Assembly (NCBI GenBank): GCA_003116875.1
Contig: BCKT01000008.1
Location: 1,138,322 to 1,202,321, forward strand
From: Takashimella koratensis
Lineage: Eukaryota; Basidiomycota; Tremellomycetes; Trichosporonales; Tetragoniomycetaceae
Reading direction: 5' to 3'
DNA: 64,000 bases
Part shown: positions 12,271 through 32,733 of the stretch, piece after piece
How positions within the stretch are numbered: position 1 is the stretch's first letter
Layout: each line of letters starts with the position of its first letter
Position numbers and translations under genes: made by a program
Notes under the pieces: model-generated
Database searches by the model: none
What the model saw: only the letters and a program-made list of their open reading frames with translations
What the model was told of the DNA's origin: nothing

Positions 12271-14831
12271 ATGCGTCCCCTCGCATCCACCTCTCGGTCC
12301 CCGTCCCTCTCTACCTTCTCTACCGTCCCCACCCTCCCCCACTCCCCTCTGCGCCTCACTCTTTTACCCTTCCTCTCACTCCTCTTCCTTCTCCTCGTCC
12401 GGCCCGTCGCTTCCTCACCCGTCCGCGTTTCTCCAGACACCTCTGACTCCGGGTCTGTCGACATCACGCAGCCAAGCCTGCCTCTCCACAATGTCAACAC
12501 CGACACCGACGCAATCGATCCCATCGGTGCATTTGGGTCTCGATCCACAGGATCACCAGCGCAGGTCGTGATGACACCCGAACCCGCGCCGACACCCACG
12601 GATACCCAGGGCTGGCTAGCGCGGTGGTTAAGTCTCGGCGGCGAAGGTACCGTCACCGTTCTCGTATGTCGTCTGCCTCCACTTTATCTTTCATCAGGTC
12701 CTCCTCTTCCACATTTACTCCTGAGCCATGAATCCACTCTCACCTCTTCACCACCCTTTTGACACTCACTTCTCCTGCCTTACTCACCCTAATCGCGCCT
12801 GGGCTTCATTACATTACCCCTTCTGCTTAGCTGACACCCCTAGCTTGGCGAGACCAACCTCTCCCTTCCTCATCGTCCCGCCGCTTTTCCAAGCCACTTC
12901 GACCCGTATTTCGCTCTTCCTGTATCTGGCAAGCTCGTACACTTTGCTCTCCTCTCTCCTCATTACCATCCTTCCGACCCATCTCACCCATCGCACCTCT
13001 CCAACCCCACTGCTCCTTCTTCCTCTCCTGCCCCTCCTGCTTCCGAAGCCGTGTCTGATCTTCGCCCTACTTGGCCTCCAAGTTTCGCGTGTGATCCCCT
13101 TCCTCGTATCCCTTACCCCCCACTCGCAATCACCACCGTCGCGCTCATCGAGAGGGGCGGGTGCGACTTTGCGACGAAAGTGAGGAACGCAAGGGTCCGA
13201 GGCGCACGGGCAGTGATTGTAGGCGATGGAGTGGCGAGGGATGGAGAGACGGATGAGGAAGGGATGAAGAGGGAGACATTGATCACCATGTTCTCACCCG
13301 GTAAGTCGTTGCCCCGCCCTTGGTCTTTGGAATAGAAGGAGTGCGAGGGGTATCACGATGGGTTTGCAAACTGACAAGTATGACGATATCTTTTTTGATC
13401 TGCGCAGAGGACACACTTGGGATCGATATCCCATCTGTATTCGTATCCCGCGCGAGCTACTTGGTCCTCCGTGACATGCTCAACAACCACACGCACTCGG
13501 GAACCAACACGGGACTCTGGGTCGATATCAGCGAAGGCATCGACGAGGGCAAGTGAGTAATGTTTGTGGGCGACCAAACCTTTTTCACCTTGTGTTATTG
13601 TATAAAGTGATGTTCATTGCTGACACCTCTGCAGCGCACTAAGCAGCCTTCTCTCATTTGCACTACTTATGCCTACGCTCATCCTCCTAGTCACGATCGG
13701 TATCCATCGTCTCCGTGTTGCGAGGTGAGTGGACTCGTACTCCCTGTACCTCTACCCCCACCCCCTCGCTCACTCTCTTCAGACAACGCGAGGCGGACCG
13801 CGCGCCACCGCTCGTCGTACTCTCCCTTCCTGAACGCATCTGGACACCCGATATCGTCTGGGAGAAAGAAGACGACTCGGATGATTCCTCTAATGGCGAC
13901 AAGGACGCGACAACGCCAACTAATGCGACTGGTCGGTCCAAATCCAAGTCTAAATCCAAAGATAAATCGACGTCCCCTTCTTCTGCAACTCGCGATGTAA
14001 ACCCAGCCTCTGGTGCCGCTACTGGATCTCAGACGGGTACTTTGCTCCACCCTCTGAACCCTTCTTTGCCTCTCCCGCCGCCCATCTCGCCCGCCGAGGT
14101 TCGAACGCCCCCGCCAACTCTCACCCAGCTGGCGGAGGACGACGCGGCCAGGGAAGCCGTTGCGCCCTCCTCTACTACCCCGCCCACAGCACCCGCTCAG
14201 CCCGTCACAGGTATCGATGGACCCAGCCTCACTGCGCCCGTCGCGTCCACTTCGCAGAAGAAGAAACGCACTCGGTCCTCAGGGAAACGGTATTTCTCCA
14301 AAGACGAATGCGCAATCTGTATGGACAGTTTTAAACGAGGAGAAATCGTTAGGATTTTGCCGTGTGGTCATGTTTTCCATAAAGACGAGTGCGACGAATG
14401 GTTGCTCAAGTGGCGCAAGCTTGTGAGTGAGATCTGGGATCGCTACGATACCTAAATCCTCAACCTCTTCTTACCTCTGTATGCTTGAATGGCTCACTGA
14501 TACTTCTTCACTTTAGTGCCCAACGTGCCGAGCCGACGTAACGGTACCTAATACCGACATGTCAAGCTCGACCGTACTCACTCCTCTTGGTCCTATTCCT
14601 GGTCCAGCCGCGGCTGGTGCCGCCGGTCCTGGTGTTGGTGGTGATGCTGTTAGGGCAGGAGCTGGAGGGATGGGTAACTGGCGCGAAAGGTTTTCACGGA
14701 CCGTCCAGGCGTTCAGAGAAGCGGTGGTTGGTGTCGGCGTCGACGGGGCGACAGTTGACGAACGGACGCCCTTGGTTCGACACGATGCGCAGACCCCAGT
14801 CCGAGGTCGACAGCTCGAAGGTAGTGTGTGA
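12271..14831 (+). CDS. PA-TM-RING type E3 ubiquitin ligase
   Basis: Members of this family (RNF13/GRAIL/Goliath type) are single-pass endomembrane ubiquitin ligases. The reading frame has a hydrophobic N-terminal signal (LTLLPFLSLLFLLLVRPVAS), then a protease-associated domain with IALIERGGCDFATKVRNA-like sequence (here TTVALIERGGCDFATKVR). A transmembrane helix near LLSFALLMPTLILLVTIG follows. The cytosolic part has a long Ser/Pro-rich linker and a RING-H2 finger: CAICMDSFKRGE, LPCGHVFHKDECDEWLL, CPTCRADV. All eight metal ligands are visible. The tail is Gly/Ala-rich. Introns are at about 12664-12841, 13302-13407 and others. Substrates cannot be read from the sequence. Confidence 0.88.
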
Positions 14832-15661
14832 GGTCATCACCCGTCAGGGCTCGATCCTTGACACTCAATTCTGTTCATCGTTGTCCGCACCGGCTCTTTC
14901 GTCACTTCATCGTCTATCCGAGCTGGTCTCTCTCGTCTTTCTTTATTCGTTTTATAAATATTGTATATCGGTACAAGGACCAGTGTACGACGGCATCTAA
15001 CGACGCCTGTCACGTTGCTCGTAATCACCTTGCCCAATGACCCAGACCACTCAGACCCTGCAGATCATCTACAAATCTACAATCTCCAGTCATTCGCCCA
15101 TACCAACCCATCTCATACTCCATGTTGTCCTCTTGCGCTAGCGTACCAGTTGTTCAGTTGTCCCCTCATGACTCCGCCTCCCGCCTCCCGCCTCCTGCTT
15201 CCCACCTCTTACGTCCCGCTCTCCCCTTCCTTGTCCGGATTCTTGTTCACTCCCACCTCTCATTGATGAGCATGTTGTGCAGTAGTCCCCAAACCCCGTT
15301 GTTCAGGTGTACGTAACCCATCTCATGCAAATGTATGTCTCTGAAAGTTGGTATGCGGTATTTGGTGTGAATGGTATTATATCTCGATCATACACACACT
15401 TATATATGGGTCTAGATGTGGTCTAGCGGTATGGACCTGGTAGGGGTCATGTAGCGGTTGAGTGACGATCCGAGGTATGTACAAATGGGGTGTGGAGAAC
15501 TGTGGCGAGCGAGAAACGCGGGTATCTTCAAGCACGACTAGCCTCGCCTATCGCCTAAGCCGCCACCTGCCTAGGTGGGACAACCAGTGGTCTGTACTTT
15601 ATCAGCTTCTACCCTTCTCTTTCTCCCTCTCCCTATCCATATCTCATTCACTCGACCAAAC
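14832..15661. other. Convergent intergenic region
   Basis: Between the RING gene and the first PPxY gene. Includes an A/T-rich stretch near 14930-14970 that may be the RING gene polyadenylation zone. No gene-like frame seen. Confidence 0.5.
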
Positions 15662-16242
15662 TCACACCCAAGGACAGGCTAGGGCAGCATACGCCACTGC
15701 CTGATCATGACTCTGCCTCATTGCGTTCGGGACGACGGGTGCGACGTAAGGATCCAGATCCTCTTCATTCTCCGGTATCGTGGAGAGCTGGAGCAAGTTT
15801 GCGTGACCGTTCAAGTGCGCCGAAAGGAGTTGAGAGGCAGCGTAGGTGTGTGTATCGCGCTTGGAGGGGAAAGGGAGGTGGAGCCGCCGAGGAGCGCGGG
15901 AGGAGGCGGAGGCGCAGGCCGAGGAAGAGGAGTGGGTTGTGAAGTGAGACGAGGAAGAGCGAGGAGAGGAGGTATCGGTATCGGTGTTGGTGCAGATGAC
16001 GAGACTTGGATCGAAAGTTAGAGATTCCTCATAAGTCGGTGGTTCGGGGTACTGCGAACTGATTAGCCGTTTGGATACAGAGTAGTCTTTTTTTTTTTTT
16101 TTTTTCATGAAAAAGAGTGCGACTGTGGACTGTAAGTACTTACTAGTCGGCATTCAGGGAGGACACGCATAAGTCGCTGTTTCTGAGCTTCGGTAAGTCG
16201 TTCGCGTTCGATACGGTGAGGGTGCGAGGTCTGGTTTCCCAT
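15662..16242 (-). CDS. Small PPxY protein with predicted N-myristoylation site (PPxY cluster member 1)
   Basis: Not recognised. Two exons (16144-16242 and 15662-16051) join in phase 0 to give 162 residues. The N-terminus MGNQTS fits an N-myristoylation signal (Gly2, Ser6). The second exon opens with YPEPPTYEES, so a PPTY motif lies at the exon start. The rest is Ser/Thr-rich with SAHLNGHANLLQLSTIPE and a short acidic stretch, and there is no membrane helix or known domain. PPxY motifs are bound by WW domains of Nedd4/Rsp5-type ligases; that link is inference here. A possible TATA sequence lies on the minus strand at 16484-16490. The intron contains a run of about 21 A bases (sense strand). 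Confidence 0.75.
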
Positions 16243-18084
16243 GGTGGCTGTGTGGTGAGGCGAGGGAAAGATTGGCGGGAAGAGTGTGGCTATGGCTGTG
16301 GGAGTCGGAAGTCGGGAGTTGGGAGTGGGTGTGGGTTTGGGTGGGGTTTTGGGTGTGGGTGGGGAGGGTTGCGGTAGTGGTGTAAAGCTTGTCGAGCAAC
16401 TGAGGTATTGGTCAAGTTGTGTGAGTGGTTTGTTCTGTTGTAGGTTGAAGGGGGGTTTGACATCAAGATCTCGACCTGTCCATTATATAGACTGAAAGTT
16501 TTGACCCGAGGCAAGGTGGTGAGGTGGTGAGGGGTGAGCTACGGAGGTGGTGAGGTCACACCGCCACAAAGTCCATGCTGAGACCCATGGATCCGATCTA
16601 CATTGTCGGTCGTCGGCGCGTCGGCCCCTGAATCCGTCCGTCCGTGGATGCGGGTACTATGGGTCCGGTGTATGAGCGTGTGGTGTGGTCGGCGCGTGTT
16701 TATGAGTCAATGTGAGGGCGAGAAAGGGTGAGTCCAAAGGGGTGAGCGGTGAATGGTGAGTGCAGGTGTAAGGGTGAAGGGGGTCGGTTGAGAGTCAGCC
16801 TGACCAGCCGCCAGCCGCGATCTCCGTCTTCGTCCACGGGCTACGTCGGTTGTCGGTTTCGGTGGACGCATGTTGGAGTCATGCGCGGATACGGTGGCGT
16901 TTCAGACGAAACTTGAGAGGGAGGGGCTGGGGGGTTGGGGGTTGGGGGCTGGGGAAGATGGAAGGAGGGAAGTGGGTAAGGGCGTGGAAGGTTATGCATG
17001 TCTGCATGTCTCGAAGCGATGTGATCTCGCTTGGCAAGAGCGCGTAAGAGCGCGAGCATGGGCAGGGTCGTAGAGCAGAGTGTAGACGGCAGGAAGCAGA
17101 GGGCAGAGACTAGAGGGGAGAGGGGAGAGGGTAGGGGGCAGAGGCAGAGGGAAGAGAAGGATCGAGGGAGGTCTCGGCAGGCCCGGCAGGAACGACAAGT
17201 GACGGACGAGTGACGAGTGACGAGTGACGAATGACGAATGACGGACGGACGGACGGAGGCACGTCGGGGAGTCCGGGTCGTTCGGATGCGTGGATCAGGG
17301 CTTACGCCCGTCGTCGTTGTCGTCGTTGTCGTCGGTGTCCTCCCTGCCAAGGGATGGGTACGAGCGTGGACACAGATGGGAGTTGAGGAGGGAAAGGGGG
17401 CAAAAGGGAGGGGGGACGTGGGTCGGAGCCACGGACGGCGGACGGCGGACGGCGGACGGCGGACGTAGGCTGTAGGTTCGGTGAATCTTTTTGAATTTAT
17501 CGGCCGCGGAGAAATTAGACGGGATTTTTAGTACAGTACTCCCCACCACGACGTAGATGATCACTCACGCGATAACCTACGACCTACACAGACCACGTGT
17601 ACGTTCAATCCAAGGTTACTGGTTTACTGTGGTGTGGTTCGGATAGTCGGATCAATGTACTTTGCGATGCGCTGGTTCACCGGGAGGGATGATCATGGTT
17701 CTGCCAACCTAGCCAGAACTTGGAATAAGAGTAAACGTACGTCAGACTCTGACGTGAGGGTCTCCTTTCCCCGGAGTCTGAAACGGGGCACATATAGTAT
17801 ACATAGACATCTGTCAAAAATCTCACCATCTTGCTCTTTGAACCATCTTGATCTGCCGAGTCTGCCCAGTCGGTTCAATCTGATCCCAGGACACCAACCA
17901 AACCGAAGAAGTACAAGTACATTACCAAATCGAAGAAAACTGTCCAAGTAGAAGAAATACCAACTAGAAACCCTATCACACACCTGAACTGAACCAGACA
18001 AATCCGACTACTTTGTACACACACGATTATCGAGCATCCTTAATCGTTGAAAAGTTGGATATACCACCACCTGCAAGTTATCCA
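16243..18084. other. Long intergenic region with tandem short repeats
   Basis: Upstream of PPxY member 1 and downstream of member 2. It holds a TATA-like site (16484-16490, minus), GTGACGA-type repeats (about 17200-17255), GTCGTC repeats (about 17307-17340) and a GGACGGC 7-mer repeat (about 17437-17466). No convincing gene was found. Confidence 0.6.
17437..17466. repeat. Tandem 7-bp GGACGGC repeat
   Basis: About four copies of GGACGGC in tandem; a similar GACGGACG run precedes it at 17240-17255. Confidence 0.8.
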
Positions 18085-19363
18085 CTACTCCCTTCCCTTT
18101 TTATCCTTCTTCTCCTTCTTCTCCTTCTTCTCTCTCTCCTTATCCTTCCCCTTGTCCTTATCCTTCCCCTTCCTCCTACTTCCACTCGACCCTTCACCCG
18201 ACCCCTCTCCCTCCCCTTCCACCTCGTACCCTCTCCCTCCCACCCTCTCTCCCTGCGCTCTCGCTCTTGCTCTCCTCACCTCCTCTCTCGCCGCTTCTCT
18301 CGGATCCATCCTCTCTTCCCCTCTCGCGATCGCTTCCGCATACCTCCTATCCCTCTCCTCCATCTCCCTATCGTACGCAACATCCCTACCCTCTTGGGCT
18401 CGATCATACGCTCTATCCCTATCCGCCTGGGCTCGGGCGTACGCCGCGTTCCGCTCTGTCATTGCCTGCTCGTACGCCATATCCCTAGCCAAAGCCGCGT
18501 CCCTCTCCGCTAAGATCTGGGTGTACCCCGCTTCCCTCCTTGCTGCCGCACTAATTTGAGCCGCTTGAACTCTCGCTGCCGCACTGATCTCCGCAGCACT
18601 CATCCTCGCCCTCGCCGCTTCCGTTCGTGCAACCGTCTCTGCTCGAGCAGCATCCACACGCGCCATCGCTACCGCCCTCAACGCCTCGACCTCGGCTTCT
18701 CCTCCTGCCCGACCAGCTTCAGCACGAGCAGCGGCGCGTTCGGCTTTTCGGTTGAGTTTGTCGACTTTACGATCAGCTTTGCGTTGCGCGCGCCGAGCTT
18801 TGCGTTCGGCTTTGCGGACTCGTTTCTCAGCTTTACGTGCGGCTCGTAGAGCGCGGTGTTCAGGTCGAGACAGGGTTTCCTGTCGAGTGTGAAAGCGAAG
18901 TTGCCAGAGGGAGTAGATAGAGAGCAAGGATCAGCTCTGACAAGGTTGGTTGATGGCACTTGGGAGAGCGTAGAGAAAGACCTACATCTGAGGATGAAGA
19001 GGAAGATGGACTCGAGCTTGACGACGAGCTCGAGGAACCGCTCTGTTGGCGGGATCGATTCTTCTTGCGAGGGTCGGGACGACCGGTTACCGCTTCGTTA
19101 TAGGTCGGCGGCTATAGTCACGAGGTCAGCATTCTCGCTCAGAGCTAGATGGGTGTTCGATCAAGCAGTCCCCAAAAGGAGGGAGAGGTCCGGTTGAGAT
19201 GAAGATACGGCGGGAAGATGGGGTGTAGACTCACGGCATCTTCGTCGGTCGGGAGACGGTTGACTTGCCGGTTAGGCGGGCCCTGAGGACAAGATGGTTA
19301 GCAGTGAGCGTAAACGAGGGAGTGGAGACAACTAACCTGGTCGCGAGACTGCGTCGATCCCAT
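18085..19363 (-). CDS. PPxY protein with predicted myristoylation site and hendecad-repeat coiled region (cluster member 2)
   Basis: Not recognised. Four exons (19337-19363, 19235-19282, 18986-19111, 18085-18879) join in phase 0 to give 331 residues. The start MGSTQS fits N-myristoylation. The third exon opens with PPTYNEAV, then a run of serines. The last exon begins with Arg/Ala/Lys-rich helix, followed by about eight 11-residue repeats ending in AYxRA-like sequence (TERNAAYARA, DRDRAYDRA, GRDVAYDRE) at about 18331-18594. The tail is Glu/Gly-rich, then a lysine-rich KDKDKGKDKE end. Eleven-residue amphipathic helical repeats often lie on membranes, which would suit a lipid-anchored protein; this is inference. 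Confidence 0.72.
18331..18594 (-). repeat. Eight tandem 33-bp repeats encoding an 11-residue helical unit
   Basis: Translated repeats follow an 11-residue period with Ala-Tyr or Ala-Ala at fixed positions and R/E/D elsewhere. They are visible in the protein more than in the DNA. Confidence 0.7.
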
Positions 19364-20350
19364 GGCGGGTCGTAGTCGAGAGCAGAGAGCAATGAGAGTG
19401 ATGTAGAAGATCAGCAATGGAATGTAGGGTTGTAAGAGGCAAGCAGAGGATTGAGGGTTGTGGGAATCTGAGCGAGGCGGTGCTTGAATGACTTTCCGCT
19501 CTTGCCGACTTGTACCCCGCGCTTATCCGCCGAAACCTAGTCAAATCTTATCGGCATCGTGCCAAGCTGTGGCTTGATAGGTAGGTCTGGACCTTTGTAC
19601 ATCCCCTCCCCACTCCAAAGCCCCAGAATCCAACACCCTGGTCATTCGACCTCGTTCTCCGCCCGACTAGTCCGCACCAGTCGGTCGGTTCTGTCCCATG
19701 CGATAGCCACATGGGATCCACGTTTTCCCTCGGTTGCAGTGGATTTTTGGTTCCGCGACGTCGACTGGTTCTCGCTTCCCATTCCGCTTCCAGTTGATCG
19801 TGGGCACTCCACCGTCGTACTCGACCGTTTGACTCGACCGTCCATAGCCTGGCCCACGATAGTTGATAGTTGCTTGTTTCAGCCTAGCACCGCTATAGTC
19901 GAGGTACAGGAGGGAACCATGACACCACTAGAGCCATGGCCAGGCGGGCTCGTGTCACCGAGATCAGGCAAGGACCACCAGCAGCCAGGAGAAGAGGAGG
20001 CCGGCTGCCGGAGCTATCTTTGGAATATCCAGAATCGCCTTGAAACAGGAAGCGAGCCCGGGAACCGAGCGATACCGCGATCACAGAGGTGGGCAAGTGG
20101 AATCTCCACTGATACAGATCTCTCGGCCGCCGTGTTGCAGAGACCATGGACGGTATAAATAACCAGCATCGTCGAGGTGGAGTTGATCACCATCATCACC
20201 ACCATTTCCCCAACCCAAGCTACCAGCTACTCCACACTCTTACCAACTACTTGAGACTTTTCTCACTTCAACACATACCCACGCCCACCCAGCTTAGCCC
20301 CAACCACCAACCACCAACCACCAACCACCAACCACCAACCACCAACCACC
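19364..20350. promoter_or_regulatory. Divergent promoter region between PPxY members 2 and 3
   Basis: Includes TATAAATA at 20154-20161 upstream of member 3, the 11-mer GGAACCGAGCG at 20061-20071 (also found upstream of member 6) and a tandem CCAACCA repeat (about 20299-20350) in the leader of member 3. No other gene seen. Confidence 0.6.
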
Positions 20351-20821
20351 ATGGCATTCCTCGCAGTTCGTGCTATCCGCGGCGGCATCACTGGCGCTGT
20401 TCACGCCTACCAAGACGGGAAAAACCCAGACGGTCCTCAACCTCATCTCAACCGCCGTGGCAAGCCACAGCGGGGTCTCCTCTACTCGGGGATGTACGGT
20501 CTTGTCTCTGCCGTTGACCAACATGGCAAGGGCAAAGGGAAAGCTACCCCTGTCCAGCTCGACCCAGATCACCGCACAGTCTCTCCCGTAAGTCCGGTCG
20601 TCGATCACCTCGAAGAACTGAAGGGGCTGATATTTGTAGTCGGAGTCGCCCAACCCTAAAGCCCCCTACGCTGTCCCGCCTAACGGCGACGCGTCGACCT
20701 ACTCTCACCGTGACGGGAACCTCCAAGACCCGTTCGACGAGGAGCACGAGCACGACGAGGAGGAGGAAGAGGAGCAAAAGCGCCTTGCTAGTGGGGTAAG
20801 TTGACATACCATTCCCTCTCC

Positions 20822-20867
<46 letters not shown>

Positions 20868-21293
20868 CCTCCCTCTCGTTTTTTTCAACCCATCATTTCA
20901 GCTCCGCCCGGTCCAGCTCCTACACATTGGGCCGCCACTGACAATCTTCAGACATCGGATGCTCCGCCGCCTTACCCCGGTCCCCCCCAGTCATCGTCCC
21001 GCTCCCTAGGCTCCACCCCATCGCCCTCTGCTACCCCGCCCGCACTGCCTCCTCGTAACCCCTCGCCCCCTGCAAGCTACCCGCACGAGGTCAACGCATA
21101 CCCCGTTAACGGCGGCTACAACAACTACAGAACCTACGGCCCCGGTGGGATCGGTGGACCCCGAGGGTACGGGTACTATGACAGCCGTCCCCACGGTCGC
21201 TTGAATCGACGAGACCGCCGAGATCTGGCGCTCCTCGAACGCCAGGCCGCCCTCGACCAGCGCCAGGCGATGGCTTATGGTGGGAGGTACTGA
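20351..21293 (+). CDS. Gly/Tyr-rich PPxY protein (cluster member 3)
   Basis: Not recognised. Three exons (20351-20587, 20640-20795, 20952-21293), all phase 0, give 244 residues. The N-terminus (MAFLAVRAIRGGITGAV) and the segment RRGKPQRGLLYSGMYGLVSAV recur in member 4. Exon 2 is very acidic (EEHEHDEEEEEEQ). Exon 3 opens TSDAPPPYPGPP, giving the PPxY motif, then a Pro/Ser region. It ends with GYGYYDSRPHGRLNRRDRR and a charged helix. No transmembrane segment or catalytic motif was seen. An alternative acceptor at 20901 exists, but the one at 20951 has the CTGAC branch site. A TATA box lies 190 bases upstream. Confidence 0.78.
20823..20865 (+). repeat. C43 homopolymer in intron 2 of PPxY member 3
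   Basis: Forty-three consecutive C bases lie between the donor at 20796 and the acceptor at 20951. Assembly of such a tract is error-prone, so its true length may differ. Confidence 0.95.
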
Positions 21294-21901
21294 AGAGTGT
21301 TGAGAGAGAACAAGGGAGAGACGCATAGACCGAGTAGATGTAGAGAAGAATAGATTCTCCAGTTAATCTTGTATCTGTACTTGTAGGTATTGTCAACTTT
21401 GTTAGTCCCCAGACACGAATGCCATGATGTCTCCATCAGAATGAGCAAAGTGTGAGGGCAGGCTGAGCATGTGAGCCGGACTGTCCCACCCAGACGATGG
21501 ATAGAAGAATATGGGAGATTAATTGCTGATGAGATCAGCCCAGAGACGTCCGAAAGGTGAAGAATGAGCGCTTCGAAAGAACGGACTCGCATGCGATGCT
21601 CTTAGGGGGTATCCTTTGCCATCCGCCGTGCAGTCAACAACATTGGATGACATGGGTTTGACCCGCCATGCATCATATCCGACGTCTGGGTGGTCAGTGG
21701 CGATCGCACGTGTTGGGAACGGCCGGGTCCGAAGTCGGGCCCCACTTGTGGCTGTAGCGGTAACTTTGATCGAAACAAGCCGGGTCACCGGGGCGGGGAG
21801 TGATGACCTCCTCGTAGCGATGTCCTAGCGGGTGGGTATATCTCTCCCTCTTCCCACGCTTCATCTCCACCTCCCCCACCACCACCACCACCACCACCAC
21901 C
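21294..21901. promoter_or_regulatory. Intergenic region and promoter of PPxY member 4
   Basis: A TATA-like sequence (about 21837-21842) lies 65 bases before the ATG and a (CAC)n run (about 21877-21901) lies directly before it. Nothing else seen. Confidence 0.55.
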
Positions 21902-23077
21902 ATGGCCTTCCTCACTCGGGGTATCTCCGACGCCATCCTTGACCGTAACGACCCCGCCGCGGCCCAGTACGGTCATCCGATGGGCTACGACCGATGGGGT
22001 CGGCCTCGTCGTCGAGGACTCCTCTACACTGGCGTATACGAAGTAACGTCCGCGATCGCTCGAAGTGGGAAAGGAAAGGGCAAGGACAAGGACAAGGACA
22101 AGGACAAGCACCAGGCGGTGCATGACCCAGCTCACCCGGCCCACCCGGCCCAACCGGGGCAAAGCTCGACGACACCCACCCAATCTCGAGGAACGCCTGT
22201 GCAGCATGACCAAGTAAGTGGACGCCAGATCAAGTCCTCTCGCTCTCCGCTCTCCGCTGTTCTGGGTGATGGTGTACAAGCCACTCTCGGGCATTGGAAT
22301 CGGTAGCGAGGCAGCAAGTCGTCGCTAACATACCCAGCACCCACACACCGATCTCAAGTCGTACCGCAGCCCGCCGGAGGACGACGAGGACAGCGACGAA
22401 GAGGCTGCTCTCGCTGGAGTTAAGAAAGACCGAGCGGCCCATACCACCCGCGACGAAGAGGACGACGACGTGAGCTTATCGTCTTATTTGAGACCCACCC
22501 TCGTCTCCTACATCCATCCACTGATTTCTCCCTCCCTCCTGCCCTTCTCCCCTCTCTTCTTTGATACCACCGCTGACACCTCATTTCTCCCCAGCCGAAC
22601 GCACCCCCTCCTTACGTTCAACACGAGGGCTCCTCCTCTCACCCAACCCAGAGTGACATTGAGCACCCCGAGACCTACCCTTCTCACGTGACCCGATCCG
22701 CTCCCGACCGTCAACCCGTCGCTACCGACCCTGCGGCCCCTTCTCCTCCCTTGGACAACAACGTTACTCGCGGTATCCCTCGCGTAGGGATGCCGCTCGA
22801 CCCACGTCTTCGTGGTGGACCAGGATTCATGGGTCGAGGTCGGTTCGGCATGAACGATCCTTACGCTATGGGTGACCCTTACGCTTATGGACCGGGGTAC
22901 CCCGTGCCCGGAATGGGCCCGGGGATCGGCATGGGCATGGACCCGTATGTAGGAGGGTACGGGTACTATGACGCAAGGCCGTATGGGCGCCTCAATCGGA
23001 TGGATCGCAGGATCGCAAGGGACGAAAGCAGGTTGATGAGGGACGAGGCGAGAGCGGTGCGCAGAGGGTACTACTGA
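21902..23077 (+). CDS. Gly/Tyr-rich PPxY protein (cluster member 4)
   Basis: Not recognised; a clear paralogue of member 3. Three phase-0 exons (21902-22213, 22338-22469, 22595-23077) give 308 residues. The start MAFLTRGISDAIL and the segment DRWGRPRRRGLLYTGVYEV match member 3 in order and spacing. A Lys/Asp run (KGKGKDKDKDKDK) follows. Exon 2 is acidic (DDEDSDEE and DEEDDD). Exon 3 opens PNAPPPYVQHEG, so the PPxY is again at the exon start, then a Gly/Met/Pro/Tyr-rich stretch with GYGYYDARPYGRLNRMDRR and a charged C-terminal helix ending RRGYY. No membrane helix seen. Confidence 0.8.
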
Positions 23078-23726
23078 TCGGCCTGGTCCTCGATCCGAAT
23101 CGATGTTTTTTAAGGTGGCCGACGTGACCATGACTCGTGAGCAGAGCGTGGAGGTGGAGGTTGAGTCTGATGGTTTTCGAAGGGGTTTCACACTGTGTAT
23201 AGTAGGACAACAAAAGCGTGTGTGAAAGCGTGTACCCGCCGGGCAGGGCAAGCTCAGGTGAGAGAGTGAGAGAGAGCGTGGTCAGTACATGTCAATGATT
23301 CTCATGAACCCCTTTTTGTCTCGGCACAGCCAGAGTGCGTTTGCTGATCGCTCACCGATACTGATTGAACGTGGCACTGTTCGCTTGCAGCTTGCACTGA
23401 CAGACAATGCCCGCCTACCCCTCTTGTCGCAGCGCCTCGCACCTTGCCGCTCCTCCCTGGCGACATGTTGGATGATATCGTCAGCCTCGCTCCGTCGCGT
23501 CGCGAGCCAGGGGAACTGAGCGAAGTGGAAACTGTTGGATGTACGCCCCACGCCCTCTCACCTCAGCCGCGTCTGAGACAAACATTGATAACATCCTCAC
23601 TCACGATATCTTCTTCTCTCTTCCCTCAACCCTCTGATTTTGAAGATTCAAGCATATCAGCTCTGTTCCCTGCTCACTTTTTCTCTCTCGACTCATCTTG
23701 TCCTCTGCTTGGCGCAGTCGCGAGCC
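23078..23726. other. Intergenic region
   Basis: Between PPxY member 4 and the helicase gene. An upstream pyrimidine-rich part (about 23590-23710) precedes the helicase start. No gene or repeat recognised. Confidence 0.5.
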
Positions 23727-26700
23727 ATGTCGAAGTATAAAGTGTGAGTTTCCGTCGTCCCTTGTTTGCCGTCAGCATCTACCTCTGCCGAGCTTTCTTC
23801 AAGCTGACGGTATCCCTTTGCGAGGGTGACGGCAGAACACCATGTCGCCACTTTCTGCAAGGTCAATGTGCCTACGGGGACCGCTGCACCTTCATCCATG
23901 ATGGTGCCAGCCCCGGTTCGGCCTCTGTCAACCCCACACGCCAGCTTCCGTGTCATGCCCTAATGCGCGGGTCGTGCAACTTCGGCAGCACCTGCAAGTT
24001 CTCTCACGACCTCTCGGACCCAGCTGTACTGGCCAATGCCAACCCCGACGACTCTGCCAACGGCATCCCCAGGGGCAAAGTGCGCGAATGGGAACGCCTC
24101 GTCGACATCGAGCACCGCCGACCAATCAAGGATATCTCCAGCATCCGTCAATTCTTCGACCTTGGACTCGATCTCGTCAGCGGCGATATCGGTACCGCCC
24201 AACAGACCTTCAAGACCATCGGGTCAGACAAAGGACTTCCATTCATTATGCAGCTGATCGATCGCCTGCTGCCTACCCTCTCAAACACCGGCGAGAAATT
24301 TGATGCATGGACGCATATGGTCCGACCATTGTTTCTTATCGTGACCAAACCCGACATCATCGACTCGGCGGTGCTCGAACAACCGGTCAGCGCAGTCTTC
24401 ACTATGCTCTACGGCGTTGGCGGACAGAGGCTCGACAAGGCGTTCGACTTTGTCACAGTGCTTCTCCCACACTGGCCGAGCCTCGCTCGCGCCGGCTGCT
24501 CTCGAGTCTCAGCTGTGCACTTGTCGCTCAACGTCCTCTCCAAGATCCTCGAGTGCAGTACCGCCAACATCGTCGACGACAGGTTCCGCCGAATCGCCGA
24601 CAAGCTCGCAACCTACGTCGTGCAAACGGTTCTTGACGAGGACGAGTTGGACAGGCTCCAAGCCCAAAAGTACCTTGCATACATCCGCCGAAAGTTGGAT
24701 ATCGGCAACGCCATTCCACACACGAGCACCACCAGCAACCTTTCCGTCATCCGAGAGACGTTCGTGCTACGTCGAGACTTCCCGGGCCACCTATCCACGC
24801 AAGGACCGCGGCACACCAACGATCACGTCGAGATCACCAACATTGCGATTATGCCGACCTACGACGAAATCATGGCAGAGCGAGCCGAGTACCTCCCTAC
24901 CACCGACACGTCCCAGTGGCACATCCCCGGTCTCCGCGGTCGACTTGACAGAGAGTTTCGCTTGCTTCGCGAAGATGCAGTCGGTCAGCTTCGCGACGCC
25001 CTCCGTGAGGTGCTCAAGCACCTCCTCCAGCCAAACACCGCCATCGATCAGCCTCGTGATCAAGCTCGCACATACACATACGACCTGCCTGCGCTCTCTC
25101 ACCTCAAGTACAACAAGTACGGTGATCTCGAGATCCTCGTCCGCTGCATGCAGCCACCGGCCGTCCAGGATCTTTCAATCAGGGACCGACGAGACTGGTG
25201 GAAACACTCCAAGAGGCTTCAAGAAGGTTCCCTCGTCTGCCTCACCGACGACACCGAAGCGATTCTCTTCTGCGTGGTCTCTCGCGCAACGCTCCGGACG
25301 GGAGACGACAAGAAACACGCTACGAACGACGATCAAGATGACTCCTCAGAGGACGAGGACCTCCCTCCACCCTCACTTGCTGAAGATGCGACTCATCTCT
25401 GGGTCGTACTCACCCCCGTCGATCCCTCCGAGGCCAACATTCGCCTGGTGCTTCATTGGTACAAGGAACTTGCGACCTCGGCGTCCCGCAGCCTTGTCGA
25501 ATTTCCAGGCGTCATGCTTGCGTCATTCAAGTACACGCTCGAGGCGCTTCAGAAGAACTACCGCCGAGCCGACCTACCATTTGCCGATCTTATAGCCCCC
25601 GTGGAGGCCCACGGTGAAGTCCTCCCCATTGCCCTCCCTCGGTACAGTCGTCGAGCCGAATTCAGCTTCGATCTCTCTTGCATCACCCAGGATCGCGAAC
25701 TCTTCGACTTCTCGCCCCACCATCCACCCAGCCCAGAGACCATTTCCAGCCGGACTTCATTGGATCCCACGCAGGCGCAAGCACTCCATGACGCACTTCG
25801 AAGTGAGCTCGCTCTCATCCAGGGCCCACCGGGGACTGGGAAGAGCTTCACTGGGGAGAGCATCATCAGAGTGCTTGTGGCGAACAAGGCAGATCACGGA
25901 CTCGGCCCCGTCCTCTGTGTATGTTACACCAACCACGCCCTCGATCAGCTCCTCGAACATCTTCTCGACGCTGGGATCAAGCAAATCATTCGAATCGGCT
26001 CGCGATCCAAAGTCGACAGAATTCGAGACCTCAACCTCCGTGTCGTGGCGATGGCCGCAGAACGGACGAGGTCGGAGAAAATCGACCTGAAGAAACTCGA
26101 TAGCTCTCTTCACCAAGCGATCACGGAGACTAGAGAAATCCTATTCAACCTCTCGGTTTCGGACTCGCGAGCCATCAAGAACTATCTCAAGCGTCACAAC
26201 ATTGCACACTTCCAGCAGCTGTATGGCGACGACAACGACGAGTGGAAGCTCGTGACAAGTCGATCCGGATCGGTCCTTCGCGACTGGCTCCGTCGCGATG
26301 TGGTCTCGGAGTTCGAGGCACGTTCTGTCACCGAGCTCCAACTGGCTCGTGTTCACGAGATGACCAACGAAGAGCGACAAATGTTGTGTCGGCACTGGCT
26401 GGACCGGATCGCCGCGCCACTCATCGACGATCTCGTGGCGACGCAGCAAGAAATCACGGACAAGAAACGATCAAGGGACCTTGTTCGCCAAGACCTCGAC
26501 CTTCGCTGCCTTAACGACGCCGACGTGATCGGTGTAACAACGACCGGTCTGGCCCAGAACCTCGAGCTTCTTCGTAAACTCCGCTGCAAGATCATGTTGT
26601 GCGAAGAAGCCGGTGAAGTCCTCGAGCCCCATGTTCTCACTGCGCTTCTTCCCAACGTCGAGCACGCCATCTTGATCGGGGACCACCTGCAGCTCAAACC

Positions 26701-29700
26701 ACAGATCCAGAACTACGACCTTCAGAGCAACAATCCGAGGGGCAAGCAGTACTCGCTCGACGTGTCCCTGTTTGAGCGCCTGGTGGAACCGCACCACCCG
26801 TCCGATCCACGGGTGCCTTTCAATATTCTCGAGACCCAGCGCCGAATGCACCCCTCGATCTCAGCCCTGGTCCGCACGACGCTTTACCCACAGCTCAAAG
26901 ACGCCGACAACGTCACAAAGTATCCAAAAGTCGCGGGGATGCGCAATCGATTGTTCTGGTTCCACCACGAGCAGCTCGAGGACAGCGTTGCGGGGGACGA
27001 AGGGATGGTGACTTCTCGGTCCAACGCCTTCGAAGTCGAGATGACCGTCGCCCTCGTCTCGTACCTCGTCCGTCAGGGCACCTACGGGTCAGAGGATATT
27101 GCGGTCCTCACCCCGTACCTGGGACAGTTGCAAAAGCTCCGGAAGCGCATGGAGGGGATGTTTGAGATCGCCCTCAGCGACCGAGACCGCGCGGACCTCG
27201 AGGCGTTGGATACTGAAACCTCAACCGCAACAAACACGGTTCTTGGCCTAGCGCCGGTCACGAAGACGACTCTGTTGAGTAGCCTCCGCGTCGCTACGGT
27301 GGACAATTTCCAAGGCGAAGAGGCTAAAGTCATCGTCATTTCTCTCGTCCGAAGCAACTTGGACAACAGGTGCGGTTTTCTCAACACCCCCAATCGGATC
27401 AATGTCCTTCTCTCTCGAGCCAAACACGGGATGTACCTTCTCGGCAACGCGAATACGTACGATCCCGTGCCCATGTGGGGTACTGTGATCGACCTGTGCA
27501 AAGAAGGCGATAACTTTGGTACCCATCTGCAACTGCAGTGTTCTCGTCACCCGGACGTCTTGCTCCCGGTGAGCCAGCCCGACGACTTCGGTCGCGTCGC
27601 TCCAGAGAGCGGATGTACCCTTCGATGTGCATTGCGACTCGCTTGTGGTCATCAGTGCACCGGCAAGTGTCACTCGGATATGCTGCACAATACCGTCAAG
27701 TGCATCGAAGATTGTCATCGCGGTTTCCAAGGATGCGACCACCCGTGTCCGAACCGCTGCGGCGAGAGGTGCCCTCCTCGTTGCAAGCAGGTGCTGGTTG
27801 ATGATCGCCTCGTCCTACCCTGTGGTCACGACAAGTTCTCTCCCCTTTGCTGGGAATCTCAAGCCCTCGACACCGTCATCTGCTTCGAATTGGTCGAACG
27901 CGTCGTCCCGGGCTGCGAGCACACGGTCCAAGTCCCATGCCACGTCGATGTCACCGACCCAGCTTATCGATGCACCTCCACTTGCGGGACTATCAACACG
28001 GTCTGCGGACACCCTTGCAGAAGCAAGTGTCACGAGTGCCGACCCCGGATCGACGGCAAGATCGTTGAAAACCACGGGTTCTGTCAAGAGCCATGCGGTC
28101 GGGGCTTCAACACCTGTTAACATAACTGCACACGACCTTGTCATGGCGAATCGCCATGCGCTCCATGTGACGCCCCCTGCGAAACCCATTGCAGTCACTC
28201 AACCTGTAGCAAAAAGTGCCATGAACCGTGTGCACCGTGCGCAGAGGAAGACTGCGCGTCTCACTGCGCGCACTCAAAGTGCACAATGCCGTGAGTGGTT
28301 GTTCACTTGCTATAAGCTTGAATGTTGACCAAGAGAACACAGTTGTGCCGCCCCCTGCGACTGGGTTCCATGCTCGTATCGTTGCGACAAAATGCTTGAT
28401 TGTGGTCACCAGTGTGAGTTTGTGAACGGGTTTGATACTTCCTTGCAATCACCTACTGATTGGCTGTTGTTAGGTCCATCGCTGTGTGGTGAGACCTGCC
28501 CCGACCAAAAGTTCTGCCAGATCTGCTGTACCGACGATATCAAGAACAAAGTCGTCGACGTCATCGAATCGTTGACCTATGACACCGTCGATCTGAACGC
28601 GGATCCGTGCGTCTTCCCTCGGTGCGGCCACTTTTTCAACGTCACCACGATGGACGGGATGATGGACATGTCGGCGTACTACGACCTTGACGATAGGGGC
28701 TTTCCACGAGCTGTAAAGAACACAGCGTTGCCGTTCTCCATGGACGAAATCAAGGTTTGCCCGACCTGCCGAGCTTCGCTGCGAGATCTCTCTCGATACG
28801 GTCGGATCGTCCGCCGGGCGATGCTGGACGAAGCGACCAAGAGGTTTGTGGCGTCCTCTTACTCAAAATACATCAAGCTAAACGACCAGCTCATTTTCGA
28901 ACGGACCAAGCTCGAAGAGCAACCCCGAAAGGACGTGATGCTTGTTCGATCCGGCAACGGGACGTTGCGACTCTCCGGATCTCGCGAAAACAATCTCGTG
29001 CGCCTGAAACCAAGGGTCAACAAGCGGTACCACGGGCTCATCAAGCTGTGGAAGCAAATCAACGACTACACCAACCAAGTCAAGATCGAGGAGCAGCCGT
29101 TCCAGCGAGTCGCAGAAATTGTCAAGGATGCGAACCGACGACGCAAGACGGACGGTCAGTTCCACTACGACGAATCGCTCATTCAGATGGGCTGCTACCT
29201 CCGCGCGACGTTGTTGCTGCTTCATTGCGAGCACATCATCTACTCGGATCTCCTGGAACTCGTCCGAGACGGCCTGTTCGTCGAAACGTTGGGGATCAAC
29301 TTTACGCCTCAGCTCAAAGATTGTGAGGGTCTGATCAAGGGCTCGCAGGCGTCGTTGCGCCCTCGCGAAGAGGTCGACGGCCATTTGTACTACGCCCGGT
29401 TTTGCGTTCTTGCCCGCGCTTTCGAAGAAACGTCTCTTCACACCACCCTCACCTCTCCCCAGCCGTCGCCGTCGGCAAATCACAAACGATCCTCTCGAGA
29501 TGCTTGGAGGGACAAGGGACTCAGACACCTGGACTACGCCCGTGCGAGGCTCGACAGAAAATCATCGACAAAGAGAGCCAAGGACGATGTCAAGGCGATC
29601 GAGAATGCCCTCAAACACGAGACGTTTTATACTTCGTTCACTACCTCCGAGATGAAGCTTGTCGTCGCAGCGATGCGCAAAGAGTTTCGGGGAACAGGCC

Positions 29701-29885
29701 ACTGGTACACATGTGCCAAGGGCCACCCTTTCACCATCGGGGAGTGCGGTATGCCAGTAGAAACGGCTAGATGCCCAGATTGCGGGGCGTCGATCGGCGG
29801 AGAGAACCTCAGGCTCGACAGCGGTGTTAAACACGCGAGGGAGATCGAGACGCTCACGAGGGACACGGAATCGGTTCGGCTCTGA
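23727..29885 (+). CDS. ZNFX1/NFX1-type UPF1-like RNA helicase, interrupted by an in-frame TAA
   Basis: Homologues (ZNFX1; Hrr1 in fission yeast) act in small-RNA silencing and, in animals, antiviral sensing. A short first exon (MSKYK) leads to two CCCH fingers (PCRHFLQGQCAYGDRC, PCHALMRGSCNFGSTC). The superfamily 1 helicase core shows GPPGTGKS, NHALDQLLEHL, LCEEAGEVLEP, GDHLQLKPQ, QRRMHPSI, VDNFQGEEAKVIV and RINVLLSRAKHGMYLLGN. A cysteine-rich NFX1-type zinc-finger array follows (CGHQCTGKCHSD and similar). At 28118-28120 a TAA stops the frame inside this array, but the same frame continues with CHGESPCAPCDAPC and more fingers. After two introns (donors at 28291 and 28413) comes a long C-terminal domain ending in a CxxC pair (CPDCGAS). 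Very few introns compared with neighbours. Confidence 0.9.
28118..28120 (+). other. In-frame TAA inside the helicase zinc-finger array
   Basis: The codon follows ...RGFNTC and precedes HNCTRPCHG in the same frame. Cysteine and histidine spacing stays regular on both sides, so the stop interrupts otherwise intact coding sequence. Confidence 0.9.
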
Positions 29886-30746
29886 CGAGTCGACATCGAT
29901 AGTCACTTGGTCGACAACGAGGGAAGCGATTTTGCGCAAAAGATTGTGAAAGTGATGTGGGAGGGAAGAATGAAGGGTTGGCGTAGGCGATGAGAGGGTC
30001 AATGTTGGACGAAAGTCAAGATGTGACTATCAATGCGGCGAGAGGAGAAACCGAGGACACGCTAACATACACCATCATTCATCGATTCTTGATACGCGAG
30101 GCGCGAGGCGTGGATGCTGTGCTCGAAAAGACGACCAGCAGCCGAGGAAGCTGCCGTTGCTGCCATCATATCTATTTATTTTTTCGACCATCTGGTGCTT
30201 GCTGAGAGCGGAGAGCTGAGCGGAGACGGAACACAGCGTGGCGGTTCAAATACCATCTACCCATAACCTATTCCTAGTGCTAATTACCTATCGACCGTCG
30301 GCCTTGTCTATGCATTCCCATATTGTGTGTACCCTCTGCGTGGAATCGAGCTAGTCAAGTGGCACTGACCTCCCCATGGAGCAACGTCCAAGCTGCGGGG
30401 CTTGACCTCATTGCCACACCCAGGGACGCCATTAGCGTAACGGAGTACCCGGATCGCTCGCTTGATACCCAAGGACCATAGCGCCGTTCGGTCCCGTTGT
30501 CGCTCACGTATCGTCTCCGTCTCGGGTTCACACGGCGCTAAGCTCACCGAGTCCGAGGACGCCGATACTGTGTATGCAAAACGAGAGGCTGAGTCAAGCG
30601 ACTCCGAGTCACCATGAAAGCCTATATAAATCCACTTGACCATCTCACTTCTGGGACCCTCAGCAATCCAACCCAATCATATCAGTTTCTTCACCACGGT
30701 ATTCTCACAACTCTTACCTACCAGACCTAAAGGACCAACAGAAACC
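29886..30746. promoter_or_regulatory. Intergenic region and promoter of PPxY member 5
   Basis: TATATAAA at 30623-30630 lies 117 bases before the ATG. CCGAGTCCG at 30547-30555 also occurs upstream of member 6. No gene seen. Confidence 0.55.
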
Positions 30747-31535
30747 ATGGCCTTGGCTCGAGGACTACTTGACGCCCAGAACCCACCGGTTCGATACGAC
30801 GCTTATGGTAGCCCGTACGGTTACGCGCCTCCACGCAGTCTCTTGACTTCTGCCGTGACGTCGATCGCGTCCTCTGCTGGGGTCGGAAAGAACAAGTCAA
30901 ACACGAGTTCCAATGCCCAAGCGGCGAACAACTACACGCAGCCCGCTCAGCAGCAGCAGGCGTCGTACGTCGACCAGCCAAACACGTACGAAGAGAGAAG
31001 CGAGTCCGATTCTGAGGACGAGAGGGATATGAAGAAAGGAAGCAACAGGCGTCAGTACGATTCGGTAAGTTGATGATATTCTATAATAAGGCTCCTTCCC
31101 CCATTCTTGCTGACAGTTTTCTTCAACTCTATGTAGCCTCCTTCAGCACCCCCTGCGTACTCGGACCCAGCCCAGACCTCGTCTCGCAACGTGAACCCTC
31201 GGCCTTCTCCTCAACCCGTTCCCGACAACATGTACTCCCCGCGATACGCGGCGCCTCAGCAGAACGTGCGTTACGCCACTCCTGCACCGCCGCCCCCGCC
31301 GCCTCCGAGCGCTGCGTACGGCCCTGGTCCGTACTACGACAACCGCGACTACTATGGAAACGGACCATACGACCCGCGCGACCCATACGGACCCGGACCT
31401 TACCCGGGTCCTTACGCCGGTGGATACGCTGGTGGTCTCGGGTACTACGACCGCCGCTACGGAGGCGGGTATTATGGTCGCCGAGGACTAGGTATCGCCG
31501 GTCGTCGTGCAATGTTGTACGACAGGAGGTTCTGA
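30747..31535 (+). CDS. Gly/Tyr-rich protein with adjacent PSAP and PPxY motifs (cluster member 5)
   Basis: Not recognised; related to members 3 and 4. Two phase-0 exons (30747-31064, 31137-31535) give 238 residues. The first exon starts MALARGLLDAQNPP, has SLLTSAVTSIASSAGVGKNK, and ends in a Gln/Ser/Glu/Asp-rich part. The second exon opens PPSAPPAYSDP, which holds both a PSAP motif and an overlapping PPAY. In other proteins these short motifs recruit Tsg101/Vps23 (ESCRT-I) and Nedd4-type ligases. The rest is Pro/Tyr/Gly-rich (GPGPYPGPYAGGYAGG) with GLGYYDRRY near the end. No membrane helix or enzyme motif. Confidence 0.8.
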
Positions 31536-32229
31536 GTGCATCCGGGAGGAGAGAAGGTTTAGATGGTTTCAGATGTATAGATAGACTTCTTTTTCCATGT
31601 GTATACTGTAGGGTTTTAGAGTAGAGGAGAAGAGATGTACGATTTATTCTGTTCAAGGTGTTTGCACCTAAGGGCTTGCTGAGGATTATCTGCGAAGAAC
31701 GACTTGGGACTGGAAGCTGCATGCATGAAGAGGCTTGGATGTGACCAACAGGGGTCCTAGCATGCATTCCAGAGGGGAGGAACAGCCCCGAGTGAGTAAA
31801 GTCGAGCGGGTGAATGATGTCATTAACATTCCAGGCGCTCGGCGGAGTGGCACTGGTCGTCTTGGTCGGTAGGTCGGGTTTCCCGAGGACCGCCATACAA
31901 AAGGCGTCGGGGAAACCTGGCGGAGGTCGGGGGAGAGGGGAAGTGGCGCTAAGCCATCAGCGGTGCATCGGAACCGAGCGTTAGGTGATCCGGAGCTACT
32001 ACTAGTAGAGGTACGAGAGAGGCGGTGGAGCCCGATTGATACATGCATACCGCCGAGTCCGTCCCCTCGTGAAGGTATATAAAACCCAGCACGAGACCAT
32101 CCCAACAAGACCTAACCAACCGTTCTCAAGTCTCAGTGAACGCAACGACTACCCCTCTCAGCACATACCCACAAGACCAAACACTCCCTCTCAATTGCCC
32201 ACAACCCAACCACACGACCACGACCCACC
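31536..32229. promoter_or_regulatory. Intergenic region and promoter of PPxY member 6
   Basis: TATATAAAA at 32076-32084 lies 146 bases before the ATG. GGAACCGAGCG at 31970-31980 and CCGAGTCCG at 32053-32061 are shared with other promoters of the cluster. No gene seen. Confidence 0.55.
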
Positions 32230-32617
32230 ATGTCGACCGTCTCTACTATTACAGCTATCGCGCACCGCCATGCTCGTGCCGACGCACATCAATTCGGCCA
32301 GCCCCAGGCTCATCCAGACTTGTGGGGTCGTCCTCGACACGGGGAATTGTATCACCGACACTATGCCCAGGCATTTCGACAGGAGATGGCGGTGATCGAC
32401 CGTCAAGGTGGCTGGGTGAGTGCTTATTTTAAGTCAGAGACGAGTCTGGCGGAGAAAAAGTAATGGAAAGAGTAGGGATAGTAGAGGGAAGAAGTAGGGT
32501 ATCCGAAATTGAGATACTGACTGGGGATAGAATCCGTCATTGCAGGGTTCAGCCGGAGCGTATGGTGATTCAGTTTCATCTGGCGGGAAACTCGCTCGGC
32601 TCTTCAGACGCGGATAG
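32230..32617 (+). CDS. Short paralogue lacking the PPxY exon (cluster member 6)
   Basis: Not recognised. Two phase-0 exons (32230-32415, 32546-32617) give 85 residues. DLWGRPRHGELYHRHYAQAF matches the WGRPRRRGLLYTGVYE segment of member 4, which supports common ancestry. The second exon encodes only GSAGAYGDSVSSGG and a basic end (KLARLFRRG), with no PPxY and no Gly/Tyr-rich tail. It may be a truncated relative or a distinct small protein. The strong TATA box suggests it is transcribed. Confidence 0.65.
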
Positions 32618-32733
32618 AGAAGCACGCTTTTAGTTCAAATCGAGAGCCACACTACCTTCGTTGTATGTATGTAACTATATGATCAGATACCATGTATATG
32701 CTCATGGTATGGCGCTCAACCAGCAGGTTACGT

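What the first reader, a model, noticed from the sequence alone, without database searches (positions are those of the whole stretch)
15662..32617. A cluster of six small PPxY-type proteins, five with the PPxY at an exon start
Members at 15662-16242, 18085-19363, 20351-21293, 21902-23077 and 30747-31535 each carry one PPTY, PPPY or PPAY, and 32230-32617 is a related short copy. In all five the motif lies within the first ten residues of the exon. All ten introns I placed in the six genes are phase 0. Members 3-6 share N-terminal segments, so they are paralogues; members 1 and 2 resemble each other in having MG(N/S)..S starts and PPTY(E/N)E. WW-domain ligases (Nedd4/Rsp5) bind PPxY, so these may be adaptor or cargo proteins of a local ubiquitin system. 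The function is unknown and the link between the two subgroups is inference.
Basis: partly seen in the sequence, partly recalled or inferred. Interest (0 to 1): 0.82.

Follow-up and report, generated by a model that had tools for sequence, protein, structure and literature searches.

The report
Fungal gene cluster with ligase-docking motifs
A stretch of an unnamed, apparently fungal genome holds five small genes that each carry one short docking motif for a ubiquitin-tagging enzyme, always just after an intron, and three of them have no lysine after that motif, so they look more like recruiters of the enzyme than its targets.

Summary
All six gene models, their coordinates and ten phase-0 GT-AG introns were rebuilt. 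Five genes (g1-g5) carry one PPxY each, 0-4 residues into an exon; g6 has none. PPxY within 4 codons of an acceptor-like site: 5 of 15 sites in the cluster, 0 of 256 in 200 kb of another contig plus the rest of the window. g3-g6 form one paralogous family; no further copy was found, though the same searches also missed g5 and g6. g1 and g2 are another kind (myristoylation-type starts), and their link to g3-g6 is unproven. One Rsp5-type ligase with three WW domains was found. New: g3-g5 have 0 lysines in 382 residues after the PPxY but 21 in 396 before it, and yeast Rsp5 prefers lysines after the motif (PMC3738095); g2 carries a predicted helical rod of 11-residue repeats; g5 overlaps PSAP with PPAY. 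Best reading: membrane-side Rsp5 recruiters, g3-g5 poor targets of their own ligase. Binding is untested. No relatives were found, without a positive control. New variant of a known kind.

The parts
15662..16242 (-). g1, 2 exons (16144-16242, 15662-16051), 162 aa, N-terminus MGNQTS (myristoylation-type)
   Evidence: gene model; the myristoylation consensus is recalled
16031..16042 (-). PPTY of g1 (residues 37-40), 3 residues into exon 2
18085..19363 (-). g2, 4 exons (19337-19363, 19235-19282, 18986-19111, 18085-18879), 331 aa, N-terminus MGSTQSR (myristoylation-type)
   Evidence: consensus recalled
19100..19111 (-). PPTY of g2 (residues 26-29), first residues of exon 3; lysines at +12 and +13
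18313..18675 (-). 11-residue repeats of g2 (residues 136-256), within a predicted long helix
   Evidence: residues 130-256: lag-11 identities 48, z 9.0, 0 of 500 shuffles; helix 60-185 of exon 4
20351..21293 (+). g3, 3 exons (20351-20587, 20640-20795, 20952-21293), 244 aa
   Evidence: rival acceptor for exon 3 at 20902
20964..20975 (+). PPPY of g3, 4 residues into exon 3
20976..21290 (+). lysine-free tail of g3 (105 aa, 0 K, 13 R)
21902..23077 (+). g4, 3 exons (21902-22213, 22338-22469, 22595-23077), 308 aa
22604..22615 (+). PPPY of g4, 3 residues into exon 3
22616..23074 (+). lysine-free tail of g4 (153 aa, 0 K, 19 R)
30747..31535 (+). g5, 2 exons (30747-31064, 31137-31535), 238 aa
31149..31160 (+). 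PPAY of g5, 4 residues into exon 2; overlaps PSAP at 31140-31151
31161..31532 (+). lysine-free tail of g5 (124 aa, 0 K, 14 R)
32230..32617 (+). g6, 2 exons (32230-32415, 32546-32617), 85 aa, N-terminal module of the g3/g4 kind without PPxY
20351..20542 (+). shared N-terminal module of g3 (two hydrophobic stretches, then GKGKGK); also g4 21902-22084 and, weaker, g5 30747-30896
   Evidence: alignments A1, A2

Best explanation
The cluster encodes small soluble proteins that dock the cell's Rsp5/Nedd4-type ligase through one PPxY each and hold it at membranes. g1 and g2 would be held by an N-terminal myristoyl group, g3-g5 perhaps by N-terminal hydrophobic stretches followed by a lysine patch. g3-g5 act as recruiters or titrators of the ligase rather than as its main targets, because no lysine follows their PPxY; g2, with lysines 12 and 13 residues after PPTY, may itself be modified. 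Shown here: genes, motifs, exon placement, lysine distribution, presence of an Rsp5-type ligase and of N-myristoyltransferase. Inferred: binding, membrane attachment, recruiter role.
For: One PPxY per gene, 0-4 residues into an exon in 5 of 5; 5 of 15 against 0 of 256 acceptor-like sites. A-P-P-x-Y are invariant columns of g3-g5 in last exons 36-40% identical to g4's. One Rsp5-type gene with three WW domains found. Lysines in g3-g5: 21 of 396 residues before, 0 of 382 after the PPxY, with 46 Arg after it (Fisher 8e-7). In yeast, Rsp5 modification of Sna3 dropped sharply when the spacer between PPxY and acceptor lysine fell below 10 residues, and a lysine before the motif was used poorly (PMC3738095, passages). 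Starts MGNQTS and MGSTQS (consensus recalled) and an N-myristoyltransferase in the genome. Helical moments in the first exons: 14, 11 and 24 of 500 shuffles reach that of g3, g4, g6.
Against: No binding data. The structure model of the g4 N-terminal exon shows no fold (mean pLDDT 51.6); g5's helical moment is ordinary (107 of 500 shuffles), and the best helices of g3 (residues 5-18), g4 (44-57) and g6 (4-17) do not lie at one shared place. The same yeast paper reports that, with the preferred lysine removed, ubiquitin went to the N-terminal MBP fusion and to Rsp5 itself, and that one lysine placed after the motif worked poorly, so the upstream lysines of g3-g5 could still be used. Lysine-free runs of 107, 127 and 149 residues occur in 3 of 5 reference frames of the window (97 and 56 in the others) and 191 in g2; g3-g5 are paralogues of biased composition, so the lysine test is not three independent events, and it was made after the fact. 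PPxY alone is unsurprising in Pro/Tyr-rich tails. No relative outside this genome was found to show conservation.
Confidence: 0.45

Rival explanations
1. They are ordinary Rsp5 substrates: the PPxY brings the ligase, which tags the protein itself for sorting or breakdown (as for yeast Sna3).
For: g2 has lysines 12 and 13 residues after the Tyr, which fits the spacing of PMC3738095 (passages); g3-g5 keep 4-10 lysines before the PPxY, and the paper saw some transfer to an N-terminal fusion when the preferred lysine was missing.
Against: g3, g4, g5 have no lysine after the PPxY and g1 has one, at +57.
Confidence: 0.2
2. Fast-evolving low-complexity tandem genes in which PPxY is a by-product of Pro/Tyr-rich composition.
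For: Shuffles give PPxY in 25%, 23% and 47% for g3, g4, g5; no Pfam family over its cut-off for g1-g6; no relatives found.
Against: Shuffles give it in 3.8% and 0.7% for g1 and g2; the position at exon starts (5 of 15 against 0 of 256).
Confidence: 0.2
3. A splicing-controlled switch: the intron just before the PPxY is kept or removed to make ligase-blind or ligase-binding forms; g6 is the fixed ligase-blind form.
For: PPxY follows a phase-0 intron in all five; retaining that intron removes PPxY in 5 of 5, and skipping exon 3 of g2 removes PPTY in frame leaving 289 aa; g6 is an N-terminal module with no PPxY.
Against: Loss on retention is expected for almost any downstream motif; no RNA evidence.
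Confidence: 0.1
4. A selfish toxin-antidote gene family like the wtf drivers of fission yeast, whose antidote form carries the PY motifs.
For: Tandem, multi-exon genes, no relatives found, PY motif confined to one exon; wtf antidotes use PY motifs to bind Rsp5-family ligases (PMC10721834, passages).
Against: wtf products are multi-transmembrane; here the highest 19-residue hydropathy mean is 1.09, so no membrane span.
Confidence: 0.03

Closest known systems
RNF11 (human)
   Same: Gly2 myristoylation, one PPxY whose Tyr is residue 40, binds and regulates Nedd4-family ligases (PMC7697665, passages); g1 has MGNQTS and PPTY at 37-40.
   Different: RNF11 has a RING-H2 domain and a palmitoylated Cys4; g1 matches no RING model and has Gln at position 4.
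Sna3 (S. cerevisiae)
   Same: Protein with a PPxY bound by WW3 of Rsp5 (PMC3738095, passages).
   Different: Sna3 keeps an acceptor lysine after the PPxY (PPxY 106-109, Lys125); g3-g5 have none. Sna3 is membrane-embedded (recalled); g1-g6 show no span.
CNAG_05520 of Cryptococcus neoformans (functional analogue of Rim8)
   Same: A non-arrestin Rsp5 partner with PxY motifs, without clear ascomycete homologues (PMC12345238, passages and section 10).
   Different: Two predicted membrane spans, four PxY motifs, a C-terminal lysine predicted to be ubiquitinated and an SxP motif.
wtf antidotes (S. pombe)
   Same: PY motifs in one part of the product bind Rsp5-family ligases (PMC10721834, passages).
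   Different: Multi-transmembrane; ubiquitination of their own lysines is needed.

Membership tests
PPxY-type Rsp5 adaptors (broad) | at least one PPxY | tested here: met
   g1-g5, one each; g6 none
PPxY-type Rsp5 adaptors (broad) | cognate WW-HECT ligase in the genome | tested here: met
PPxY-type Rsp5 adaptors (broad) | WW binding and transfer of ubiquitin to a third protein | not testable with these tools
   needs pull-down and ubiquitination assay
alpha-arrestins (ART) | arrestin fold | tested here: not met
   no arrestin model among Pfam matches up to E 1 for g1-g6; a Bul1_N match to g2 (11.3 bits, cut-off 28.7) is over its low-complexity part
Bsd2/Ndfip/Sna3-type membrane adaptors | transmembrane segments (recalled) | tested here: not met
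   highest Kyte-Doolittle 19-residue mean 1.09
RNF11 | RING-H2 domain | tested here: not met
RNF11 | N-terminal Gly2 myristoylation signal plus PPxY | tested here: met
   sequence of g1 and g2; the consensus is recalled, the modification itself untested
wtf drivers | multi-transmembrane toxin and antidote forms | tested here: not met
11-residue-repeat membrane helices (perilipin, LEA, synuclein types; recalled), for g2 only | 11-residue periodicity in one long helix | tested here: met
   stretch chosen by eye
11-residue-repeat membrane helices (perilipin, LEA, synuclein types; recalled), for g2 only | sequence match to a described family | tested here: not met
   no such model for g2 among Pfam matches up to E 1

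The most novel reading that the evidence does not exclude
Two unrelated gene families (lipid-tailed g1, g2 and the lysine-free g3-g5) have been gathered at one locus as switchable tethers for Rsp5: the ligase-docking motif is always encoded just after an intron, so splicing decides whether the tether can hold the ligase, lysine loss keeps the tether from being tagged, and g6 is a permanent ligase-blind competitor.
Probability: 0.1. Interest if true: 0.75.

Novelty: new variant of a known kind. Interest (0 to 1): 0.5.

Why it matters
Most fungi have one or a few RSP5 genes (PMC5913265, passages) and get specificity from partner proteins; in C. neoformans both arrestin-like and non-arrestin adaptors are reported (PMC12345238, passages). 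A cluster of soluble, lysine-poor PPxY proteins would add a kind of recruiter that is not consumed by its own ligase, and gives a direct test of the published preference of Rsp5 for lysines after the PPxY.

Tried and rejected
Relatives outside the genome: three protein searches (g4: 5214 candidates, none at E 0.01; alignment of g4, g3, g5, g6: the 7990 candidates sharing most words scored, none at 0.1; g1: 86 candidates, none at 1). No positive control was run, so coverage of fungi in that database is unknown and the null is weak. g2 was not searched; g3, g5, g6 only within the alignment.

More copies in the genome: exon searches with g4 exons 1 and 3, g5 exon 2, g3 exon 1, g1 exons 1 and 2, g2 exon 4 gave no further PPxY paralogue. 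Their sensitivity is low: g4 and g3 exon 1 found each other but not g5 or g6, and the last exons of g4 and g5 found only themselves besides weak matches, so diverged copies could be missed. g1 exon 2 has a 40%-identical stretch at C1:2394145 (E 2e-4) with no PPxY in any frame of L018. Dropped as weak: three matches at E 0.06-0.6 and L019 (E 0.0076).

One ancestral family for all six: unproven. g1-g2 (z 8.1), g2-g4 (z 3.4) and g1-g4 (z 3.9) score above shuffles, but the alignments are PPTY plus a Ser run, a Lys/Gly run and low complexity.

Shared promoter: TATAWA lies 122-197 bp upstream of g3, g5, g6 and 247 bp upstream of g1, not within 250 bp of g2 or g4. In 450 bp upstream of g3-g6, two 8-mers (and their complements) occur in three of four genes, no 9-mer. 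Not pursued.

Recalled ascomycete proteins with an N-terminal helix, acidic stretch and PPPY, like g3, could not be tested.

Full report
What was checked. The six genes were rebuilt from the DNA. Coordinates, strands, exon counts and phases agree with the finding: ten introns, all GT-AG and phase 0. Nine of ten have a CTRAY branch-like site ending 8-24 nt before the intron end; g2 intron 3 does not. g1 (162 aa) and g2 (331 aa) lie on the minus strand, g3 (244), g4 (308), g5 (238) and g6 (85) on the plus strand. Between g4 and g5 lie two long frames (23741-28120, 28329-29885) of a helicase with AAA_11/AAA_12, CCCH and RZ-type zinc-finger matches (the ZNFX1 model stayed below its cut-off). The window lies on contig C8 of a 25.1-Mb, 24-contig genome. 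The organism was not identified; introns and ligase fit a fungus (inference).

Is it more than chance? Shuffling residues gives PPxY in 3.8, 0.7, 25, 23 and 47% of cases for g1-g5; in 2 of 20,000 sets five of the six genes had it. The motif starts 3, 0, 4, 3 and 4 residues into an exon. As a background I took acceptor-like sites on both strands (CTRAY ending 7-26 nt before the end of YAG, 40 open codons after). PPxY within 0-4 codons follows 5 of 15 such sites in 15601-32700 and 0 of 256 in 200 kb of contig C1 plus 46.9 kb of the window. With the 19 other last letters, the background gave one hit each for PPxL, PPxE, PPxP and PPxM, the cluster one each for PPxA, PPxV and PPxR, and the rest none. 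The test was made after seeing the genes and uses predicted sites. Outside the cluster 7 PPxY occur in open frames of 60 or more codons of the window; I judged by eye that none is clearly in a gene, but built no gene models there. For g3 an upstream acceptor (exon start 20902) would change frame and lose PPPY; the chosen one has CTGAC ending 9 nt before the intron end.

Relations. g3, g4, g5 are clear paralogues (z 10.7-15.9; none of 200 shuffles as good), and g6 matches g3 and g4 (z 5.3, 5.5) but not g5 (21 of 200 shuffles reach it). In first exons alone g3-g5 is weak (26 of 500 shuffles reach it), g5-g6 absent (255 of 500), g4-g5 strong (0 of 500). g1 and g2 share the start type and PPTY(E/N)E; their alignment beats all 200 shuffles (z 8.1), but beyond the PPTY it is a Ser run. 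No other copy of g3-g5 was found, but those searches also failed to find g5 and g6 from g3 or g4, so diverged copies elsewhere are not excluded. g1 exon 2 resembles a stretch on C1 (40% over 74 aa) that has no PPxY.

Who reads the motif? The HECT family search gave 11 pieces on four contigs; only the one at C9:337916-338872 has WW domains just before it (3 of 6 WW matches). Both searches score only the best candidates. Its frame shows three WW domains with Y(Y/F)VDHNTxTTTW and its best PDB matches are RSP5 (3olm, 1.7e-146; 4lcd). One RSP5 gene is the count listed for C. neoformans and U. maydis, two for Laccaria bicolor (PMC5913265, passages). Matches to a UEV domain (ESCRT-I type) and to N-myristoyltransferase are present.

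(a) Lysines: after the PPxY g3, g4, g5 have 0 in 105, 153 and 124 residues, with 13, 19 and 14 arginines; before it 7, 10 and 4 lysines. Fisher 8e-7 by residue, 6e-8 for Lys against Arg. In the alignment of these last exons 32 columns hold an Arg and none a Lys. In yeast, Rsp5 modifies Sna3 at Lys125 after PPxY 106-109; a spacer below 10 residues, or a lysine placed before the motif, worked poorly (PMC3738095, passages). So g3-g5 lack the preferred acceptor. Against this: with Lys125 removed, ubiquitin went to the N-terminal fusion and to Rsp5, and one lysine placed after the motif worked poorly too; paralogues are not independent; composition is biased; lysine-free runs of 107, 127 and 149 residues occur in 3 of 5 reference frames and 191 in g2. 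(b) g2 has lysines at +12 and +13 and its last exon is predicted as long helices (49 and 126 residues among four; mean pLDDT 82, single sequence) with an 11-residue period (48 identities at lag 11, z 9.0; lag 22 z 5.4; stretch chosen by eye). The resemblance to perilipin, LEA or synuclein repeats is recalled. (c) g5 reads PPSAPPAY: a P(S/T)xP motif overlaps the PPxY, the ESCRT-I-type and ligase motifs side by side; P(S/T)xP occurs once each in g3 and g4 too, away from the PPxY, so chance is not excluded. (d) g1 matches human RNF11 in layout: Gly2, and a PPxY with Tyr at residue 40 (PMC7697665, passages), but lacks the RING and Cys4. (e) Retaining the intron before the PPxY would remove it in 5 of 5; skipping g2 exon 3 removes PPTY in frame.

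Mechanism. Most likely these proteins bring Rsp5 to membranes and to partners. Shown: motifs, ligase, gene structure, lysine distribution. Inferred: binding, anchoring and recruiter role. The structure model of the g4 N-terminal exon is uninformative (mean pLDDT 51.6); helical moments are high in g3, g4 and g6 but not g5, and at different places. g6 may compete through the shared module (inference).

Known or new? No relatives were found in a database whose fungal content I did not test. Seven paper searches in an open-access library (listed of found: 20 of 103, 11 of 11, 10 of 10, 2 of 2, 8 of 13, 10 of 85, 8 of 108) listed no paper that, by title and start of abstract, describes such a cluster; unlisted papers were not seen. 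PPxY partners of Rsp5 are a known kind; soluble ones with lysine-free tails, in a paralogous cluster with exon-start motifs, look like a new variant.

Noticed in passing
window 28118-28120: An in-frame TAA interrupts the zinc-finger array of the helicase frame between g4 and g5; Cys/His repeats go on in the same frame after it.
   Followed up: partly
window 46341-52611 (-), perhaps also 44408-45253: A second run of tandem relatives: frames at 46341-47075 and 47076-47603 each match those at 49220-49834 and 51112-52611, and these two match each other (24-31% identity, E 4e-8 to 6e-14); 44408-45253 matches one weakly (4e-4). Frames at 53234 and 54260 did not match; none of the seven has PPxY.
   Followed up: partly
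window 20823-20865: A run of 43 C within intron 2 of g3, a possible assembly or length-variable site.
   Followed up: no
window 12844-14452 (+): Frames with PA-domain and RING matches beside g1: perhaps one membrane RING ligase gene; no gene model was built.
   Followed up: partly
upstream of g3, g5, g6 (and g1): TATAWA boxes 122-197 bp before the ATG of g3, g5, g6 (247 bp for g1), against 0.06 expected per 250 bp per strand: perhaps regulated expression.
   Followed up: partly
L018 (C1:2394145-2394366): A stretch 40% identical to part of g1 exon 2 in a frame without PPxY.
   Followed up: partly
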